Part shown: one piece after another, positions 3 through 27,891 of the stretch | Layout: every line of letters begins with the position of its first letter | Position numbering within the stretch: the first letter of the stretch is position 1 | Source of the DNA: Pseudomonas farsensis | GTDB taxonomy: Bacteria > Pseudomonadota > Gammaproteobacteria > Pseudomonadales > Pseudomonadaceae | Reading direction: 5' to 3' | NCBI RefSeq assembly: GCF_014268805.2 | Contig: NZ_JABWRF020000003.1 | Span: forward strand, 338,001-402,000 | DNA: 64,000 bases | Made by a program: the position numbers and the translations under genes | The notes under the pieces: generated by a model | The model's database searches: none | What the model was told of the DNA's origin: nothing | The model's input: only the letters and a program-made list of their open reading frames with translations

Positions 3-383
<381 letters not shown>

Positions 384-7449: not shown

Positions 7450-10023
7450 TTATAACAGGTTCTTTAGTTGATATAGCATTTCGATAGCTTCACGCGGCGT
7501 CATGTCGTCCAGCGCCAGCTTGCCCAGCTTCTCGATGGCCGGGTGGGGCAGGGTGGCGAACAGGTCGCTCTGGTGCGGCACGTTTGGCTCGCCCTTGCTC
7601 TTGCTGGCAAGTGGCGCGTCGTGGGGCAGGCTTGCGGTTTCAAGCCGGCCCAGATGCTCGCGGGCACGCTGGATCACCGCGCCAGGAACCCCGGCCAGTT
7701 GCGCCACGGCCAGGCCGTAGCTCTGGCTGGCGGGGCCGGGCAGCACATGGTGCAGGAATACGATGCGCTCGTTGTGCTCGGTGGCGTTCAGGTGCACGTT
7801 GGCCACCAGCGGCTCGCTCTCGGGCAGCACGGTCAGCTCGAAATAGTGCGTGGCAAACAAGGTATAGGCGCGCAACTGGGCCAGCCGCTCGGCAGCCGCC
7901 CACGCCAGCGACAGGCCGTCGAAGGTGCTGGTGCCACGGCCCACTTCGTCCATCAGCACAAGGCTGCGGTCGGTGGCGTTATGCAGAATATTGGCGGTTT
8001 CGCTCATCTCGACCATGAAGGTCGAGCGGCCACCGGCCAAGTCGTCGCTTGAGCCGATACGGGTGAAGATGCGGTCGACCAGCGACAGCTCGCACGCCGC
8101 TGCCGGCACGAAGCTGCCGATGTGTGCCATTAGCACAATCAAGGCGGTTTGGCGCATGTAGGTCGATTTACCGCCCATGTTCGGGCCGGTGATGATCAAC
8201 ATGCGCGTGCTGTCGTCCAGGCCTAGGTCGTTGGCCACGAACGGCGTGGTCAGCACTTGCTCGACCACCGGGTGACGGCCTTGCTCGATACGCAGGCATG
8301 GTTCGTCGACAAATTGCGGGCAGTTCAGGTCCAGGTTGAGCGCACGCTCCGCCAGGTTGCTCAGCACATCCAGTTCGGCCAGTGCTGCGGCGCTGTCCTG
8401 CAACGGCGCCAAGTGGCCGATGAGGGTTTCGAGCAGGGCGTCGTAGAGCATCTTCTCGCGGGCCAGGGCACGGCTTTTGGCCGACAGCGCCTTGTCTTCG
8501 AAGGCTTTGAGCTCTGGGGTAATGAACCGCTCGGCGCCCTTGAGGGTCTGGCGGCGGATGTAATCGGCCGGCGCCTGCTCGGCTTGCTTGGTGGGTAGCT
8601 CGATGAAGTAGCCATGCACGCGGTTGTAGCCGACCTTGAGGTTGGCAAGCCCGGTGCGGGCCTTTTCGCGTGCTTCTAGGTCGATGAGGAACTGGCCGGC
8701 GTTTTCGCTCATGGCCAGCAGCTCGTCCAGCTCGGGGTCGTAACCGGTCTTGAGCACCCCACCATCGCGGATCACCGCAGGCGGGTTATCGATGATCGCC
8801 CGCTCCAGCAGGCCAGCCAGCTCCGGGTAGGTGCCGGTGATGGCCGCCAGGCGCGCCAGGTGCGGCGCTTCCAGTTCGGCCATGGCATTTTGCAGTTCGG
8901 GGAGTGCGCCCAAGGCATCACGCAGGCGCGCCAGGTCGCGCGGGCGAGCATTACGCAGGCCAATGCGCGCCAGAATACGTTCGAGGTCGCCGATTTCCTT
9001 GAGCTGCGGTTGCAGCTTTTCGAAGCGGTAACCATCTAGCAGGCAGCGGATCGAGTCCTGGCGCGCCTTCAATACTTTGAGGTCGCGCAGCGGGCGGTTC
9101 AGCCAGCGGGTCAGCAAGCGGCTGGCCATGGCGGTCTGGCAGCGGTCGATGACCGACTGCAAGGTATTGTCGCGGCCACCGGCCAGGTTGATGTCCAGCT
9201 CCAGGTTGCGACGGCTGGCCGCGTCGAGGATGACGGTGTCGTCCATGCGTTCGTGGCGCAGGCTGCGCAGGTGCGGCAGCGAGGTGCGCTGGGTTTCCTT
9301 GGCGTAGGTCAGCAGGCAGCCGGCGGCGCCGATGGCCAGGGTCAGCTTGTCGCAGCCAAAACCCTTGAGGTCCTGGGTGGCGAACTGTTGGCACAGCGCC
9401 TTGCGCGCCGAATCACGGTCAAAGTCCCACGGCGCACGGCGACGGGCACCTGGGCGTTTCTCGGCAGGCAGGCCCTGTGGCCAGTCATCCGGGATCAGCA
9501 GTTCGACCGGGTTCAGCCGCTCAAGCTCGGCCAGCAGGTTTTCCCAGCCTTTGATCTCTTGCACGATGAAGTTGCCGCTGGTGATATCCAGCACCGCCAG
9601 CCCGAACAGGCGCTCGTCACCCAGCAACGCGGCAATGAGGTTGTCGCGGCGTTCATCGAGCAACGCTTCGTCGCTGACAGTACCGGGGGTGATGATACGC
9701 ACCACCTGGCGCTCCACCGGCCCCTTGCTGGTCGCCGGGTCGCCAACCTGCTCGCAGATCACCACCGACTCGCCAAGCTTGACCAGCTTGGCCAGGTAGC
9801 CTTCAAGCGAGTGGAACGGAATTCCGCACATCGGAATGGACTGGCCCGCCGACTGCCCACGGGCGGTCAGGGTGATATCCAGCAGTTTCGCGGCCTTCTT
9901 TGCATCTTCGTAGAAGATCTCGTAGAAGTCGCCCATGCGGTAGAACATCAGCTGGTCTGGGTGCTGGTTTTTCAGCTTCCAGTACTGCTGCATCATCGGG
10001 GTGTGTGCGGAGAGATCGGACAT
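7450..10023 (-). CDS. mutS: DNA mismatch repair protein MutS
   Basis: An 857-residue MutS that recognises mismatches and starts methyl-directed repair. The mismatch-reading motif is [12 protein letters not shown] (Phe33, Glu35). The ATPase Walker [10 protein letters not shown] is near residue 615, followed by [12 protein letters not shown] (Walker B region) and ATHYFELT. The start is ATG at 10023 (MSDLSAHTP); the frame is open 72 bp further, but that part is not conserved. It is the left border of the tailocin cluster, the known mutS-cinA/recA tailocin site in this genus. Confidence 0.97.
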
Positions 10024-10753
10024 TCGGGGCCTTGAAGCAGAGCGTTTGTTAGACAAATGCGAAACCGGCAATTCTACAGGCTTTCGCCGGCACATGCCGC
10101 TACGATGTTTGCGCGTGCGGGTCTAACAGCGTTTCTTCCCAGCAGGCCCAGGCCACCGGTCAGCCGTTATGGTTGACATAAAGGTCAGCGGATACCTACT
10201 GTTGATTTGAGCGCGAAACCAGTTGCCATCCAACGGCTAGAACTGGCGTAAGAACCCCGTCGATGGTTGGGTCATCAGCGTAGGGTGAGACCTCCACACC
10301 CCTGCTTGAGGGTGTGTATATGAATATCAAGCACTCATTTCAGGCCGCTCTCAGTAGCGGCCTTTTCTTTGCGTGATATTACCGAACCGGAGCGTTCAGG
10401 TCTGAGTAGCGCTGGAAAAGCAGCTGGCTATGGCGATGTTGGTTCAGGGACTTGGCATCAGTGTGCATAAAGTTCCAGAGCACTTTGCCATTCTCCATCG
10501 TCACGCTGACAAGCATCTGCCTTTTCGACTCATAGGCGCCGGCGATGCTGTGCTCAAGGCGTTGGTTGTCGTGCTCAAGGTGGTCCCATGCCCTTGGATA
10601 GGAAGTGCGACATGGTGCCACAGATCTGTGGCGTAGCCCGTTCAACAGATCGACAAGCCGTTGCTATGAGAGCTGCTGGAGCCAACGCCTGCGGACGTTT
10701 ATTACTAGGCAATCTCACTGCGAGTATTGCGTTCCATTAAACAGAACCTCATT
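10024..10753. other. mutS-tailocin junction, about 730 bp without a clear gene
   Basis: No well-supported gene is seen. There is a hairpin CCACACCC / GGGTGTGT near 10294-10318. An 18-codon ORF at 10320-10376 (MNIKHSFQAAL...) overlaps a hairpin with the pattern GGCCGCT / AGCGGCC plus TTTTCTTT at 10343-10369 that looks like a terminator. A weak minus-strand ORF lies at 10379-10645. This may be the scar of tailocin insertion or a remnant of an older gene. Confidence 0.5.
10379..10645 (-). CDS. hypothetical small protein (doubtful)
   Basis: An 88-codon frame using a TTG start, or a shorter form from an internal ATG (MLVSVTMENG). It has no recognisable domain and no clear ribosome-binding site. 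It is charged, with many His and Gln residues near the C terminus. It could be a remnant at the tailocin border. I keep it only as a possibility. Confidence 0.25.
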   Translation of the reverse strand: MNGLRHRSVAPCRTSYPRAWDHLEHDNQRLEHSIAGAYESKRQMLVSVTMENGKVLWNFMHTDAKSLNQHRHSQLLFQRYSDLNAPVR

Positions 10754-18999: not shown

Positions 19000-20166
19000 A
19001 TGAGTGGATTCTTCCACGGCGTCACCGTGACCAACGTCGACACCGGCGCACGCAGCATCGCGCTGCCTTCGTCCTCGATCATCGGCCTGGTCGATACCTT
19101 CACCGAGGGCCCAGGCGCTACCGCCAAGGCCAACGACCTGATCCTGATCACCAGCGAGCGCGAAGCCGTCGCGGCATTCGGCCCGGATGCCGCCATTACC
19201 CGTGCCTGCCGCGCCATCTATAGCCGCGCCAAGGCGGTCATTGTTGCCTGCGGCGTGGCCAAGCTCAGCGACCGAGCCGAGCAGACCTCGGCGATCATCG
19301 GCAGCGTGCTGGCCGACGGCAAGCGCACCGGTTTGCAGGCGCTGCTGGACGGCAAGAGCCGTTTCAACGCCCAGCCACGCCTGCTGGCAGCCCCCAAACA
19401 CAGTGCCACCCAAGCGGTCGGCACCGCGCTGGTGGCCCTGGCCGACAAGCTGCGCGCCATTGCCATCATCGATGGCCCCAATACCACCGACGAGGCGGCC
19501 ATCGCATATGCCGAAAACTTCGGCGCCAAGCGCGCCTTCCTGGTCGACCCAGGCGTGCGCTACTGGGACACCGAGCAGGCCGCCACCGTGGATGCGCCGG
19601 GTTCTGCGTGGGTAGCCGGCCTGTTCGCCTGGACCGACCGCGAGTACGGCTTCTGGGCCTCGCCTTCGAACAAGGAGTTCGTCGGCATCACCGGCACCGG
19701 CCGCGCCGTTGAGTTTCTCGATGGCGACGACACCTGCCGCGCCAACCTGCTCAACAACGCCAACATCGCCACCATCATCCGCGATGACGGCTTCCGCCTG
19801 TGGGGCAACCGCACGCTGTCCAGCGACCCGAAATGGGCCTTCGTCACCCGCGTGCGGACCATGGACATCGTCATGGACGCGATCCTCTATGGCCACAAAT
19901 GGGCGGTCGATCGCTCCATCACCGCCACCTACGTCAAGGACGTCACCGAAGGCCTGCAAGCCTTCATGCGCGACCTGAAGAACCAGGGCGCGATCATCAA
20001 CTTCGAGGTCTATGCCGACCCCGAGCTGAACACTGCCAGCCAGCTGGAGCAGGGCAAGGTGTACTGGAACATCCGCTTCACCGACGTACCGCCTGCCGAA
20101 AACCCCAATTTCCGCGTTGAAGTCACCAACCAGTGGCTGACCGAAGTTCTCGATTCCGCCGCTTAA
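19000..20166 (+). CDS. contractile tail sheath protein
   Basis: A 388-residue P2 FI-like sheath protein. Features are the N-terminal HGVTVTNVDTGARSIA, internal TEDSR-like region replaced by FLVDPGVRYWDTEQAATVDAPGS, and C-terminal INFEVYADPELNTASQLEQGKVYWNIRFTDV that forms the interlocking arms. It is the main contractile part. RBS GGAGC lies just before the ATG. Confidence 0.95.
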   Translation: MSGFFHGVTVTNVDTGARSIALPSSSIIGLVDTFTEGPGATAKANDLILITSEREAVAAFGPDAAITRACRAIYSRAKAVIVACGVAKLSDRAEQTSAIIGSVLADGKRTGLQALLDGKSRFNAQPRLLAAPKHSATQAVGTALVALADKLRAIAIIDGPNTTDEAAIAYAENFGAKRAFLVDPGVRYWDTEQAATVDAPGSAWVAGLFAWTDREYGFWASPSNKEFVGITGTGRAVEFLDGDDTCRANLLNNANIATIIRDDGFRLWGNRTLSSDPKWAFVTRVRTMDIVMDAILYGHKWAVDRSITATYVKDVTEGLQAFMRDLKNQGAIINFEVYADPELNTASQLEQGKVYWNIRFTDVPPAENPNFRVEVTNQWLTEVLDSAA

Positions 20167-20179
20167 GGAGCGCATTTAC

Positions 20180-20689
20180 ATGGCAATGATTCCCGAAACA
20201 CTGGCCAACCTGAACCTGTTCGTCGATGGCGTGAGCTTTCAAGGCGACGTTCCCAGCCTGACCCTGCCCAAGCTCACCCTGAAAATGGAAGAGTTCCGCC
20301 CCGGCGGCATGGACATGGCGGTCGAAATGGACCAAGGCATGGAAAAACAGGAAGCCGCCTTTACCACCACCGGCGTGCGCCGCGAAGCACTGAAGTTCTT
20401 CGGCCTGGCCGATGGCAACGGCTTCAACGGCACCTTCCGCGGTGCCTTCAAGGGCCTCAAGGGCCAGGTCAACCCGGTGGTGGTGACCCTGCGCGGCACC
20501 CTCAAGGAAGTCGACATGGGTGACTGGAAATCCGGCGACAAGGCCGAGGTCAAGCACACCGTTGGCGTGACCTACTACAAGCTCGAAGTCGATGGCCGCC
20601 TGATCTACGAGATCGACGCCATGGGCATGAAGCGGGTGATCGACGGCGTCGACCAACTGGCCGCCCAGCGCGCCGCCCTGGGTTTGTGA
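20180..20689 (+). CDS. tail tube protein
   Basis: A 169-residue P2 FII family tube protein (MAMIPETLANLNLFVDG; LTLKMEEFRPGGMDM; EVKHTVGVTYYKLEVDG). It stacks as hexamers to form the rigid inner tube. It follows the sheath gene by 13 bp, as usual. Confidence 0.95.
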   Translation: MAMIPETLANLNLFVDGVSFQGDVPSLTLPKLTLKMEEFRPGGMDMAVEMDQGMEKQEAAFTTTGVRREALKFFGLADGNGFNGTFRGAFKGLKGQVNPVVVTLRGTLKEVDMGDWKSGDKAEVKHTVGVTYYKLEVDGRLIYEIDAMGMKRVIDGVDQLAAQRAALGL

Positions 20690-20700
20690 GGAGAGCAGAA

Positions 20701-21003
20701 ATGGCTCAAGCGAAAAAAATCCCGCAGTGGCTCAACGTCAGTGCCGAGCAAGTCACCGTGCGCCTGTCCCGTGCCAGTGAAGCCAATGGTGTACAGGTTG
20801 ATAGCCTGACCCTGCGTGCACCCACCGTGCGCGATATCCGCAACGCCCAGGCGGGCGGCAGCAAGGACGACGAACAGCGCGAGCTGAACCTGTTCGCCTC
20901 GCTGGCCGAAGTCGGCGTCAAGGACCTCGAAGGGCTGGCGCTCAAGGACTACAGCCGCCTGCAAGCCGGCTACTTTCGCCTGGTGCAGGACGACGAGCTT
21001 TGA
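20701..21003 (+). CDS. tail assembly chaperone E
   Basis: A 100-residue P2 gpE-like protein (QVDSLTLRAPTVRDIRNAQ is typical) that coats the tape measure during assembly. In the P2 family part of the ribosomes shift frame near its end to make a longer E+E' product. Here the sequence at the stop is CTT TGA C, and an open extension runs on in the +1 frame to 21115. Confidence 0.88.
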   Translation: MAQAKKIPQWLNVSAEQVTVRLSRASEANGVQVDSLTLRAPTVRDIRNAQAGGSKDDEQRELNLFASLAEVGVKDLEGLALKDYSRLQAGYFRLVQDDEL

Positions 21004-21115
21004 CCCAGCCCGGCAGAAGGCCGCCGCACGGCGGCTGGCCTGCGAGCTGAATTTTTCTGCGAGCGAAATCATGGGCATGTCGTACCCCGACATGCTCTGG
21101 TGGCTCGCGCCGTGA
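20999..21115 (+). CDS. E' extension read by +1 frameshift
   Basis: The frame starting at TTT 20999 stays open for 38 codons (FDPARQKAAARRLACELNF... to DMLWWLAP) and has no good start of its own. The part ELNFSASEIMGMSYPDMLWW has the pattern of P2 E' (one amphipathic segment near a conserved Trp). To join it to E the ribosome must move +1 (or -2) at CTT TGA C, the same heptamer used by the release factor 2 gene. No strong Shine-Dalgarno stimulator is seen upstream. Confidence 0.65.
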   Translation, partial: FDPARQKAAARRLACELNFSASEIMGMSYPDMLWWLAP

Positions 21116-21128
21116 CAAGGAGGAACGC

Positions 21129-22826
21129 ATGGCGAACACACAAGTGTTCACCCTCGGCGTCACCCCCATCGCTTCGCTTGGCAGCGCGCTCGACGCGCTG
21201 CGCAAGCAGGCCGATGGCACCCGGCTCGGACGGCTGATCGGCGAGATCATCCGCCTGGGGCTGGAGCTGGACAAGGTGCGCCTGGTTGAACGACGCCTGG
21301 CGATTGACCAGGCCTGGGCCCATGAACAACAGATCGACCGGCTGCAGCGCGAAGGTGATGCAGTCGAAGGCTTGCGCAGGCGGTATCTGGCGCTGCGCAG
21401 GGCAATAGCGTTGCAGCCGCCGAAGGCTCGGACCGTTAGTGCTGATAGCAGTGAAGCAGGCGTACCCACACAGAGCAAAAGCCCGCCTGCGGCTGGGGGA
21501 AAAACCACTGTTCCGGCCAATGAATCATCGGAGCAGGGAGCGGCTAAAGACAGTCGGCAGGCGCCAGCCCCGTACCCCCGTGATAAAGCGGACACCGGTG
21601 TTGTGGTCGGCTCCATAGGCGGCGTGATTGCAGCAACGCTGGCAGTTGGTTTGTTCAAAAAGATGCCTGCTCATTTGCAGACCAGCGTTAAGGAGGCTGC
21701 CCACGAAGGTGGGCCGACTGCCCTTGGTAAAGGGCTTGTGGCGCTTACCGAAGAAAACGAGCAAGACAGGGCAAGAGGCCTTGGCGCCGCTGCCGGCGAG
21801 TTGGCAGGCGGCGTATTGGGCACGCTGCTGGGGGCGTTGACCAAGAACGAGAAAGCCAAAAAATATGGCGGCAAGATCGGCGAGTCGTTAGGAGAAGAGA
21901 TCGGTGGGGCATTTGGCGCTCTGCTGTATGACAAGGTTTACGCTGACCCTGCCCCGAGCGACAAGTCAGCTACTGGCTCCAAAGCTACAAGCCGACCCAA
22001 TGACAGCACTAGAACGTCGCGCGATGAGGATGACGAGCCGCCGGAAGAGTATGAGGACGAGGAAGAAATAGAAGAGGAGGAAGAGGAGGAAGAGGAGGAA
22101 GAGGCAGAGGAAGAGGTCGAGGAGTTTGAAGACGACGAAGTGCGAGCTGCTTCATCTCTGCAATCCACACAGCCCTCGACGGCGCCATCGCAACCTGGCT
22201 CGGCATTGGGCTCTGCCTTGCTCGGCGCCGCCTCGCTCGCAGGCCTGGCCGGCAAAACCTCGGCCAGCCCAGCTGGCGCCTCGTTGGCCAGCCGGGCGAT
22301 GCGCCGGGTGCCGGTTTTGTCTGTGCTTGCCACCGGCATGCAACTGGCCGATACCTACAACAGCGATGCCACGCCTGATGAAAAACTCGAAGGCTACGGC
22401 GCGGCTGTCGGCGGTTTGGGTGGAGGCCTTGCGGGTGCGGCGGCAGGGGCCGCAATTGGCTCGGTTGTGCCGGTCGTCGGCACCTTGATTGGTGGCCTGA
22501 TCGGCGGCGCGCTCGGCAGCATGGGCGGGGAGAGTATCGGCGGTTTGCTTGGCAAGGTACTCGGCAGCAGTGCCGATGATGTCCCTACTGCGCCTGGCCC
22601 CGCGCCATCTGCCATACCTACGCCGGTGCCAACGGCTGCAACGCCCCCTGCGCCCACCAACCAGCAGTTCACCTTCACCGCCAACATGCCAGTCACCTTC
22701 ACCAACAGCCTGTCCGACCCCAGCGTCCTGCAGCAGTTGGAGGCCATCGCGCGCCGACAGCTGGAAGAACTGATGCGCCAGGCGCGTTCGGTGCAGTTGG
22801 CCGACGCCCCCCACATCGCACTCTAA
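21129..22826 (+). CDS. tail tape measure protein
   Basis: A 565-residue protein in the tape measure position right after E/E'. The N-terminal ~100 residues are a coiled coil rich in Leu, Arg and Glu. There are glycine-rich hydrophobic stretches at about 160-185 and in the region 415-480. An almost pure Glu/Asp stretch lies at about residues 298-338. The C terminus (QQLEAIARRQLEELMRQARS) is again helical. It is short next to phage tape measures and should set a tail of about 85 nm if the usual ~1.5 angstrom per residue rule holds. Confidence 0.82.
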   Translation: MANTQVFTLGVTPIASLGSALDALRKQADGTRLGRLIGEIIRLGLELDKVRLVERRLAIDQAWAHEQQIDRLQREGDAVEGLRRRYLALRRAIALQPPKARTVSADSSEAGVPTQSKSPPAAGGKTTVPANESSEQGAAKDSRQAPAPYPRDKADTGVVVGSIGGVIAATLAVGLFKKMPAHLQTSVKEAAHEGGPTALGKGLVALTEENEQDRARGLGAAAGELAGGVLGTLLGALTKNEKAKKYGGKIGESLGEEIGGAFGALLYDKVYADPAPSDKSATGSKATSRPNDSTRTSRDEDDEPPEEYEDEEEIEEEEEEEEEEEAEEEVEEFEDDEVRAASSLQSTQPSTAPSQPGSALGSALLGAASLAGLAGKTSASPAGASLASRAMRRVPVLSVLATGMQLADTYNSDATPDEKLEGYGAAVGGLGGGLAGAAAGAAIGSVVPVVGTLIGGLIGGALGSMGGESIGGLLGKVLGSSADDVPTAPGPAPSAIPTPVPTAATPPAPTNQQFTFTANMPVTFTNSLSDPSVLQQLEAIARRQLEELMRQARSVQLADAPHIAL

Positions 22827-26781: not shown

Positions 26782-26823
26782 ATTCCGGCCATCAGGGCCA
26801 AAGTCGAACACGTGAGGGTTTCA

Positions 26824-27891
26824 ATGGACGACAACAAGAAGCGCGCCTTGGCTGCGGCCCTGGGTCAGATCGAACGCCAGTTTGGCAAGGGCGCAGTCAT
26901 GCGCATGGGCGATCACGAACGCCAGGGCATCCCGTCAATCTCCACCGGCTCGCTGGGCCTGGACATCGCCCTTGGCATTGGCGGCCTGCCCAAAGGCCGT
27001 ATCGTCGAGATCTACGGCCCGGAATCGTCGGGTAAAACCACGCTGACCCTGTCGGTCATCGCCGAAGCGCAAAAAAGCGGCGCCACCTGCGCCTTCGTTG
27101 ACGCCGAGCACGCCCTCGACCCCGAGTACGCCGGCAAGCTGGGCGTCAACGTCGATGACTTGCTGGTTTCGCAGCCCGACACCGGCGAACAGGCCCTGGA
27201 AATCACCGACATGCTGGTGCGTTCCAACGCGGTTGACGTGATCATCGTCGACTCCGTGGCAGCACTGGTACCCAAGGCCGAAATCGAAGGCGAAATGGGC
27301 GACATGCACGTCGGCCTGCAAGCCCGCCTGATGTCCCAGGCCCTGCGCAAGATCACCGGTAACATCAAGAACGCCAACTGCCTGGTTATCTTCATCAACC
27401 AGATTCGTATGAAAATCGGCGTAATGTTCGGCAGCCCGGAAACCACCACCGGTGGTAACGCGCTGAAGTTCTACGCTTCGGTACGCCTCGACATCCGCCG
27501 CACTGGCGCGGTCAAGGAAGGTGACGAAGTGGTGGGTAGCGAAACCCGCGTCAAAGTCGTCAAGAACAAGGTTTCGCCACCGTTCCGTCAGGCTGAATTC
27601 CAGATTCTCTACGGCAAGGGTATCTACCGCAACGGTGAAGTCATCGACCTGGGTGTTGCCCACGGGTTCATTGAAAAAGCCGGTGCCTGGTACAGCTACC
27701 AAGGCAACAAGATCGGCCAGGGCAAGGCGAACTCTGCCAAGTTCCTGCAAGAAAACCCGGCTATTGGCGCAGAGATCGAGAAGATGATTCGGGACAAGCT
27801 GCTGACCACCGGCGCTGCTGCCGCTGCTGGTAAAGCCGCGGCTGCCCAGGCTGATGCCAGCGACCTGGCTGACGCCGAAGCCGGTGTCTGA
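26824..27891 (+). CDS. recA: recombinase RecA
   Basis: A 355-residue RecA, the strand-exchange ATPase and co-protease for LexA-like repressors. Walker A is GPESSGKT (65-72); L1/L2 loops are in the [20 protein letters not shown] and [20 protein letters not shown] regions. The C-terminal tail is Ala-rich and acidic. ATG 26824 gives MDDNKKRAL; a GTG-linked upstream extension in the same frame is not conserved. SOS box upstream; recX follows 8 bp after. Confidence 0.98.

What the first reader, a model, noticed from the sequence alone, without database searches (positions are those of the whole stretch)
20990..21115. Tail chaperone E/E' joined by a +1 frameshift at CTT TGA C
E ends at CTT TGA C, identical to the +1 site of the RF2 gene prfB. 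The +1 frame is open for 38 codons with an E'-like sequence and has no start codon of its own near the front. P2-type E' normally uses -1 slippage; a +1 (or -2) mode in a tailocin would be unusual.
Basis: partly seen in the sequence, partly recalled or inferred. Interest (0 to 1): 0.65.

Follow-up and report, generated by a model that had tools for sequence, protein, structure and literature searches.

The report
Tailocin +1 frameshift, upstream UUU-C site

Summary
In detail: E (20701-21003) ends CTT TGA C, and a conserved E' lies in the +1 frame without its own nearby start codon. The +1 mode is supported; the site is not. CTTTGAC occurs in 64 of 199 unique relatives and 22 lack any NTT before the stop, yet E' is in the +1 frame in all (broken in one). 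What never changes is a Phe codon nine codons upstream, TTT followed by C (20974-20977): 199 of 199, although eleven window genes use TTT for 22 of 131 Phe. Synonymous change drops at that codon (26.8 to 8.6 per codon), as expected if both frames are read from there. In a second set 64 of 65 keep it; the exception has no recognisable E'. In tandem E-E genes the first copy lacks the site in 18 of 18, the last keeps it. TTT_CGN is a known +1 motif of eukaryotic viruses, proposed for haloarchaeal tail chaperones. Most likely tRNA-Phe slips UUU to UUC, giving a 137-aa fusion. No protein evidence yet. New variant of a known kind.

The parts
20701..21003 (+). gene E, tail assembly chaperone (0-frame product, 100 aa)
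   Evidence: Pfam PF10109 Phage_TAC_7 E=2.2e-21; phrog_166 tail protein
20974..20977 (+). proposed +1 slip site TTT_C (context TAC TTT CGC); tRNA-Phe moves from UUU to UUC
   Evidence: 199 of 199 unique relatives; 64 of 65 unique sequences in a second set, the exception lacking a recognisable E'; 0 changes on the tree for 189 sequences
20978..21003 (+). region read in both frames: end of E (0 frame) and start of the E' part (+1 frame, AWCRTTSF)
   Evidence: synonymous changes per codon 8.6 in codons 92-100 against 26.8 in codons 5-91; no +1 stop between TTT and the E stop in 199 of 199
20978..21115 (+). E' part of the fusion, 45 codons in the +1 frame plus stop TGA 21113-21115
   Evidence: length 45 aa in 189 of 199, 44 in 7; profile match to -1-frame E' of phages, probability 97, E=1.1e-10
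20998..21004 (+).
   Evidence: exact heptamer in 64 of 199 unique relatives; NTT before a stop in 177 of 199
21129..22826 (+). tape-measure gene, likely client of E and E-E'
   Evidence: phrog_794 tail length tape measure E=5.2e-29
20180..20689 (+). tail tube gene
   Evidence: Pfam PF04985 Phage_tube E=1.9e-58
19000..20166 (+). tail sheath gene
   Evidence: phrog_23 tail sheath E=1.1e-112

Best explanation
Gene E of this R-type tailocin carries a programmed +1 ribosomal frameshift site at TTT_CGC (20974-20979). Most ribosomes read on in frame and make E (100 aa). A minority let the peptidyl-tRNA-Phe slip from UUU forward to UUC, skip one base, and continue in the +1 frame (GCC TGG ...), making a 137-aa E-E' fusion whose end carries the conserved WWL motif. 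By analogy with P2 and lambda, E would coat the tape-measure protein and the rarer E-E' would recruit tube subunits. The CTT TGA C at the end of E is not the shift site: it arises where a Phe codon (TTT) of the +1 frame overlaps the stop codon of the 0 frame. Shown here by comparison: frame relation, invariance of TTT_C, start of two-frame constraint at that codon, absence of the site in a relative without E' and in non-terminal E copies. Inferred: that slippage happens, its direction (+1 rather than -2), its efficiency and the role of the fusion.
For: (1) TTT_C in 199 of 199 unique E sequences (192 at the aligned codon as TTT_CGN, 7 one codon later as TTT_CTG), while eleven window genes use TTT 22 and TTC 109 times and the other conserved Phe column of E is TTC in 150 of 193. 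On a tree of E the codon has 0 changes (189 sequences) against 22 synonymous changes at Phe65 (199 sequences) and 17 at Phe26 of E'. (2) Synonymous changes are 30, 32 and 20 at codons 89-91, then 1 at codon 92 and 1-18 at 93-100; this 9-codon window is the lowest of 92 (77 against 154 for the lowest window that does not overlap it, codons 1-9). (3) Second set, no sequence identical to the first: 64 of 65 unique sequences have TTT_C (61 of the 62 not looked at before); the exception (TTC ATG, L301; L303 is its copy) has no E' that a profile finds in six frames. (4) Tandem E-E genes: last copy TTT_C in 18 of 18; first copy, where a slip would abort the gene, has TCG (16), GCG (1) or ACG (1). (5) P. 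aeruginosa-type records lack an NTT-stop but keep TTT CGC and the +1 E'. (6) UUU_CGN is an established +1 motif: PA-X of influenza A, site and direction by mass spectrometry (PMC3498833, abstract seen); plant amalgaviruses (PMC5052127, passages).
Against: No protein or reporter evidence. TTT_C alone does not force +1: Achromobacter phage Mano reads GGT TTT CTC and is annotated as, and by sequence is, -1. CGC is the commonest Arg codon of the window genes (170 of 274), so no slow A-site codon is apparent. No RNA structure beyond chance near the site (z -0.19, 1.05, 0.38) and no drop of synonymous change upstream of the site, so any stimulator is unknown. The NTT-stop is also kept more often than codon usage predicts (177 of 199); two-frame coding explains this only if the Phe at +1 residue 8 (181 of 199) matters. 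Low synonymous change over codons 92-100 could in part reflect a cis-acting signal rather than coding. The sequences share ancestry; the tandem copies may reflect two or three events.
Confidence: 0.85

Rival explanations
1. One reading: +1 slip at CTT TGA C as in prfB, tRNA-Leu moving from CUU to UUU while the stop codon waits for release factor.
For: Exact prfB heptamer in the window; prfB consensus CTT_TGA_C (PMC3711429, passages). NTT before the stop in 177 of 199 unique relatives with C, G, A or T first, more than codon usage predicts.
Against: CTTTGAC in only 64 of 199; GTT-stop in 59 of 199 although tRNA-Val should re-pair poorly on UUU (pairing argument, not a tool result); CTG TAA in 9 of 199; P. 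aeruginosa-type records have no such site but keep E' in +1. It does not explain invariant TTT_C, nor the drop of synonymous change that starts at codon 92, nor the absence of TTT_C in L301 and in first copies of tandem E.
Confidence: 0.07
2. Both sites are used: mainly TTT_C, with the NTT-stop as a second chance for ribosomes that reach the end of E.
For: Both motifs are kept beyond codon usage in most relatives.
Against: Lineages without the NTT-stop keep E' in +1, so it is dispensable; two-frame coding already explains it.
Confidence: 0.1
3. A -2 shift, as reported for phage Mu, reaches the same frame and adds one residue.
For: +1 and -2 give the same frame; Mu gp41 belongs by name to the same Pfam family and -2 is on record for Mu (PMC5009743, passage).
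Against: From TTT a -2 move puts tRNA-Phe on ATT/ACT (or a codon such as CCT where Phe is one codon later), without pairing; +1 puts it on UUC, a perfect match, and the following C is invariant (pairing is an argument, not a measurement).
Confidence: 0.04
4. E' is a separate protein made by re-initiation or from an ATG in the +1 frame, or it is not made.
For: Some lineages have an ATG in the +1 frame near the E stop (L211, L212, L215, L219, L220, L232, L235, L244, L254, L264; L053 by sequence); 12 of 82 NTT sequences have an ATG in the open +1 stretch, 8 of these 50 nt before the E stop and so upstream of TTT; P. aeruginosa-type records have ATG inside E'.
Against: The window has no ATG, GTG or TTG in the open +1 stretch before 21071 and 52 of 82 NTT sequences have none of the three upstream of the E stop. 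+1 residues such as W at position 2 (191 of 199, plus 7 at position 1) are conserved also where no start precedes them; TTT_C is kept in the ATG lineages too.
Confidence: 0.03

Closest known systems
P2 E/E+E' tail chaperone (-1 frameshift at TTTTTTG)
   Same: Gene order tube - E - E' - tape measure; E' reached by frameshift (record annotation); the slip involves a TTT Phe codon near the end of E, GGT TTT TTG; KS5, KS14, KL3 keep the site (PMC3091744, passages).
   Different: Direction is +1, not -1; the slip codon is followed by C (TTT CGC), not TTN.
UUU_CGN +1 motif of influenza A PA-X and plant amalgaviruses
   Same: Same sequence in the same phase (0-frame UUU, next codon CGN in 192 of 199), same proposed P-site slip of tRNA-Phe onto UUC (PMC5052127, passages); for influenza A stimulatory signals also seem absent (PMC5009743, passage).
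   Different: Bacterial ribosomes; tail chaperone gene; 7 of 199 have CTG in place of CGN; CGC is common in the host genes counted.
HF1-group haloviruses, tail chaperone pair with TTT-CGC (PMC7230728, passages read)
   Same: +1 relation of two small genes between tube and tape measure; TTT-CGC in a conserved 15-bp stretch near the stop of the first gene; proposed, not tested.
   Different: Archaeal viruses, six genomes aligned; relationship of the proteins not tested here.
prfB (RF2) +1 site CTT_TGA_C
   Same: Same heptamer at the end of E in the window.
   Different: Heptamer not conserved, stop may be TGA, TAA or TAG, no SD-like AGGGGG at its position; probably not the shift site.
Phage Mu gp41 and the frame behind it
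   Same: Same Pfam family by name and an open +1/-2 frame behind gp41.
   Different: Mu is reported as -2 (PMC5009743); its end of gp41 (CGG GGG CGA) lacks TTT_C.

Membership tests
E/E' tail assembly chaperone pair (P2/lambda type) | Short gene between tube and tape measure of family E/41/14 | tested here: met
   PF10109 E=2.2e-21; neighbours PF04985 tube and tape measure
E/E' tail assembly chaperone pair (P2/lambda type) | Second part E' in another frame, without own start, homologous to E' of phages | tested here: met
   +1 frame; first ATG 21071; profile of 11 tailocin E' against 12 -1-frame E' probability 97, E=1.1e-10. The Pfam GpE model itself does not hit
P2-type -1 frameshift | E' in the -1 frame behind a slippery TTTTTTG-like site | tested here: not met
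   -1 frame closes at 21048; E' in +1 in the tailocin relatives
prfB-type +1 site (CTT stop C) | Heptamer conserved where the second frame is conserved | tested here: not met
   CTTTGAC 64 of 199, NTT-stop 177 of 199; no NTT-stop in 34 of the 64 second-set sequences that have E'
prfB-type +1 site (CTT stop C) | SD-like stimulator about 3 nt upstream | tested here: not met
   Window reads CAG GAC GAC GAG CTT TGA; no AGGGGG; the exact prfB layout is recalled, PMC3711429 only names an upstream SD-type stimulator
UUU_CGN +1 frameshift class | In-frame TTT followed by CGN inside the overlap, invariant in relatives | tested here: met
   TTT_C 199 of 199; CGN follows in 192, CTG in 7; 64 of 65 in the second set
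UUU_CGN +1 frameshift class | Fusion peptide showing F followed by the +1 codon | not testable with these tools
   needs mass spectrometry
UUU_CGN +1 frameshift class | Two-frame constraint begins at the motif | tested here: met
   26.8 to 8.6 synonymous changes per codon, step at codon 92
Mu-type -2 frameshift | Re-pairing possible two bases back | tested here: inconclusive
   Pairing argues against it at TTT (sequences); direction not measured

The most novel reading that the evidence does not exclude
The R-tailocins of two Pseudomonas groups changed the direction of the tail-chaperone frameshift from -1 to +1 while keeping a TTT Phe slip codon near the end of E: GGT TTT TTN became TAY TTT CGY. 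They use a +1 site that needs neither stop codon, SD-like element nor RNA structure, a bacterial counterpart of the UUU_CGN class so far established in eukaryotic viruses.
Probability: 0.7. Interest if true: 0.68.

Novelty: new variant of a known kind. Interest (0 to 1): 0.6.

Why it matters
Frameshifting in tail chaperones is textbook knowledge, and -1, -2 and +1 are all on record (PMC5009743, passage). New here would be a clade-wide +1 mode in bacterial R-tailocins at UUU_C, with a clean comparative signature and natural controls (a relative without the site and without E'; tandem E genes whose first copy lacks the site). It would give bacteria a simple +1 site that acts in elongation, not termination, so it should not respond to RF2 as prfB does (inference). 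It would also show that frameshift direction can switch in evolution while the protein pair and slip region are kept. In practice it corrects where the fusion junction should be placed when tailocin genes are annotated.

Tried and rejected
Shift at CTT TGA C: rejected as the common mechanism because of CTG TAA and P. aeruginosa-type lineages. Switch to a separate E' with its own ATG in some lineages (idea): set aside because TTT_C is kept there. RNA structure as stimulator: three folds, none clearly better than shuffles. Pfam GpE for E' alone or in the fusion: no hit; NCBIfam: no hit for E or the fusion. Prior art: the searches (one search lists 20 of 175 papers) showed no paper that I recognised as describing a +1 or UUU_CGN site in a tailocin or pyocin; only passages of some listed or cited papers were read and one abstract with outline. 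Xu, Hendrix & Duda 2004 was not looked up and Christie 2002 is not held, so an earlier mention there cannot be excluded. No structure prediction was run: it would not separate the two junctions.

Full report
What was claimed. The sequence is as described. E is 20701-21003, 100 aa, Pfam Phage_TAC_7 (E, 41 or 14) at 2.2e-21. By gene order the locus is an R-type tailocin between mutS (7450-10095, minus strand) and recA (26812-27891), with sheath, tube, E/E', tape measure and baseplate genes; mutS and recA are named from their translations, and pyocin-like clusters at mutS-recA of Pseudomonas are known (PMC2647930, passages). That the host is a Pseudomonas rests on the titles of near relatives. 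The +1 frame is open from 20888 to the stop at 21113, well upstream of the heptamer, and its first ATG is at 21071; the -1 frame closes at 21048. Only a +1 or -2 shift can join E to E'.

Relatives. E was searched in genome contigs (54 loci), viral contigs (best 80 of 181), the host genome (2 copies), 298 genomes of the genus (89 with a match), 274 genomes of the class with the Pfam model (12 with a match), 145 of the order (11) and the phage collection (38 records). In 135 of the 136 loci of the first sets (L136 was on the other strand and entered later as L197) and in the 103 genus loci parsed E' is in the +1 frame; one viral contig (L074) is broken off inside E'. Together these are 237 sequences, 199 unique around the junction; 198 of 199 carry the WW end of E' in the +1 frame, L074 being the other.

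The heptamer is not the constant. Among the 199, CTTTGAC is in 64; NTT before a stop in 177 (CTT, GTT, TTT, ATT; TGA, TAA and three TAG); CTG TAA in 9; other endings in 13. In P. aeruginosa-type records (L137, L268, L269 and those) E runs 5 to 14 codons further and there is no NTT-stop, yet E' is in +1.

The constant. Nine codons before the E stop of the window is Phe92, TTT (20974-20976), followed by C. TTT followed by C is present in 199 of 199: 192 at the aligned codon (next codon CGC 160, CGT 31, CGA 1) and 7 one codon later, there followed by CTG (four of the seven by codon display, L052, L053, L216 and L221; the other three show the same F-L residues). Eleven window genes use TTT 22 and TTC 109 times; the other conserved Phe of E is TTC in 150 of 193. 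On a tree of E built from the codon alignment, parsimony gives 0 changes at TTT (189 of 199 sequences used: the 7 with the moved Phe and 3 with other E' lengths left out; with all 199, where seven rows have another residue in that column, 1 synonymous and 3 other) against 22 synonymous changes at Phe65 and 17 at Phe26 of E'.

Where two-frame reading begins. Parsimony counts of synonymous change are 30, 32, 20 at codons 89-91, then 1, 16, 10, 8, 13, 6, 4, 18, 1 at 92-100; means 26.8 (codons 5-91) and 8.6 (92-100). The window 92-100 is the lowest of all 92 nine-codon windows (77; the lowest that does not overlap it is codons 1-9 with 154). The same amino acids elsewhere in E change more, for example Asp 21-42 against 6 and 4, Val 20-35 against 8; Gln differs least, mean 17 against 13. 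No sequence has a +1 stop between TTT and the E stop (0 of 199), whereas +1 stops lie as close as 23 nt upstream of TTT, at the median 32 nt. The first +1 residues are conserved: A or V in 191, then W in 191 of 199. This fits a shift at TTT_C. It does not fit a shift only at the stop, unless these 27 nt are a cis-acting signal.

Two natural controls. First, TTT_C was expected in further sequences: P. aeruginosa-like genomes (17 of 25 with a match) and two more viral scans (20 and 37 loci). Of 78 loci parsed, 65 unique (L137, L268 and L269, already seen, among them; none identical to the first 199), 64 have TTT_C at the aligned codon, that is 61 of the 62 not looked at before; 30 of the 65 have an NTT-stop. 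The exception L301 reads TTC ATG and has no recognisable E': a profile of E' finds nothing in six frames of L301 or its copy L303 (best E 6.7), while L137, L264, L268 and L297 score 1.2e-16 or better. Second, 18 unique sequences have two E domains in one ORF. The last copy has TTT_C in 18 of 18; the first copy has Ser TCG (16), Ala GCG (1) or Thr ACG (1, L264) at that place. A slip in the first copy would be harmful, so absence of the site there is what the model predicts; most of these loci are related and may stand for two or three events.

Direction elsewhere. Of 13 phage records fetched, 12 have E' in the -1 frame; the thirteenth is the P. aeruginosa record L137. Mica and Mano are annotated as frameshift products. 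Their ends of E differ: AAT TTT A is common, AcaML1 and WO have GGT TTT TTG, FoX5 has CGT TTT ACC, Persinger GGT TTC ATC, and Mano GGT TTT CTC, so TTT_C by itself is compatible with -1. P2 is -1 at GGT TTT TTG. In the class sample 9 of 12 loci have a -1 E' (one of them, L190, without a TTT run), 3 have none that I recognised, none is +1; one of the -1 loci, L184, comes from the host's own family. In the order sample 15 of 17 unique loci are -1 (one cut by its contig end; two further matches were not fetched) and the two P. aeruginosa-like ones +1. The -1 and +1 E' parts are homologous by profile comparison (probability 97, E 1.1e-10). By eye the TTT lies within one or two codons of the same place in both kinds, so a switch of direction at a kept Phe codon is likely but not proven.

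Mechanism. tRNA-Phe reads UUU and UUC; slipping forward from UUU to UUC improves pairing (PMC5052127, figure legend), and the invariant C after TTT is what this needs. A -2 move would put it on ATT or ACT. Influenza A PA-X uses UCC_UUU_CGU in the +1 direction by mass spectrometry (PMC3498833, abstract and outline); UUU_CGN is the motif of plant amalgaviruses (PMC5052127, passages), where 1-2% efficiency is quoted for the influenza site; TTT-CGC was proposed for the tail chaperones of HF1-like haloviruses (PMC7230728, passages). That tailed phages use -1, -2 or +1 is stated in PMC5009743 (passages). No stimulator was found: no fold beyond chance, no constraint upstream, and CGC is common (170 of 274 Arg). 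A low, unstimulated level could suffice for a chaperone needed in few copies; that is inference.

Why CTT TGA C then? In the +1 frame the eighth residue is Phe in 181 of 199. A Phe codon TTT that overlaps a 0-frame stop reads NTT TRA; TTC would remove the stop, as seen in L211 and its relatives, whose E runs on. A second, minor slip at the stop cannot be excluded.

Verdict. Observation confirmed; +1 mode supported; site moved to TTT_C at 20974-20977. Confidence 0.85 in this site, pending protein evidence. New variant of a known kind.

Noticed in passing
L051/L227, L218, L224, L229, L230, L233, L236, L238, L239, L242, L243, L245, L246, L248, L251, L255, L256, L264: Tandem duplication of the E domain inside one ORF (about 195-220 aa) in some Pseudomonas tailocins; the first copy lacks the Phe slip codon. 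Purpose of the double E unknown.
   Followed up: partly
L301 and L303 (further copies in genome G716): E homologue without a recognisable E', TTC ATG in place of TTT CGC, followed by an unrelated ORF; a tail gene set that does without the fusion, or a decayed one.
   Followed up: partly
22044-22139 (inside the tape-measure gene 21129-22826): Long run of Glu/Asp (EEYEDEEEIEEEEEEEEEEEAEEEVEEFEDDE) in the tape-measure protein; unusual low-complexity acidic stretch (position).
   Followed up: no
G000:C5:25601-25894 (L136, L197): The host has a second E/E' pair (74% identical E) elsewhere in its genome, with the same CTT TGA C; it is among the 199 sequences that all have TTT_C.
   Followed up: partly
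L001 (NZ_VWXI01000002.1): Record titled 'Pantoea sp. Cy-639' carries an E 92% identical to this Pseudomonas tailocin; possibly a mislabelled Pseudomonas genome.
   Followed up: no
L211, L212, L215, L219, L220, L053, L232, L235, L244, L254, L264: An ATG lies in the +1 frame near the end of E; whether it gives an extra short E' protein is open.
   Followed up: partly
L139 (Achromobacter phage Mano): End of E reads GGT TTT CTC, a TTT_C, yet E' is in the -1 frame; a useful counter-example for what decides the direction of slippage.
   Followed up: no
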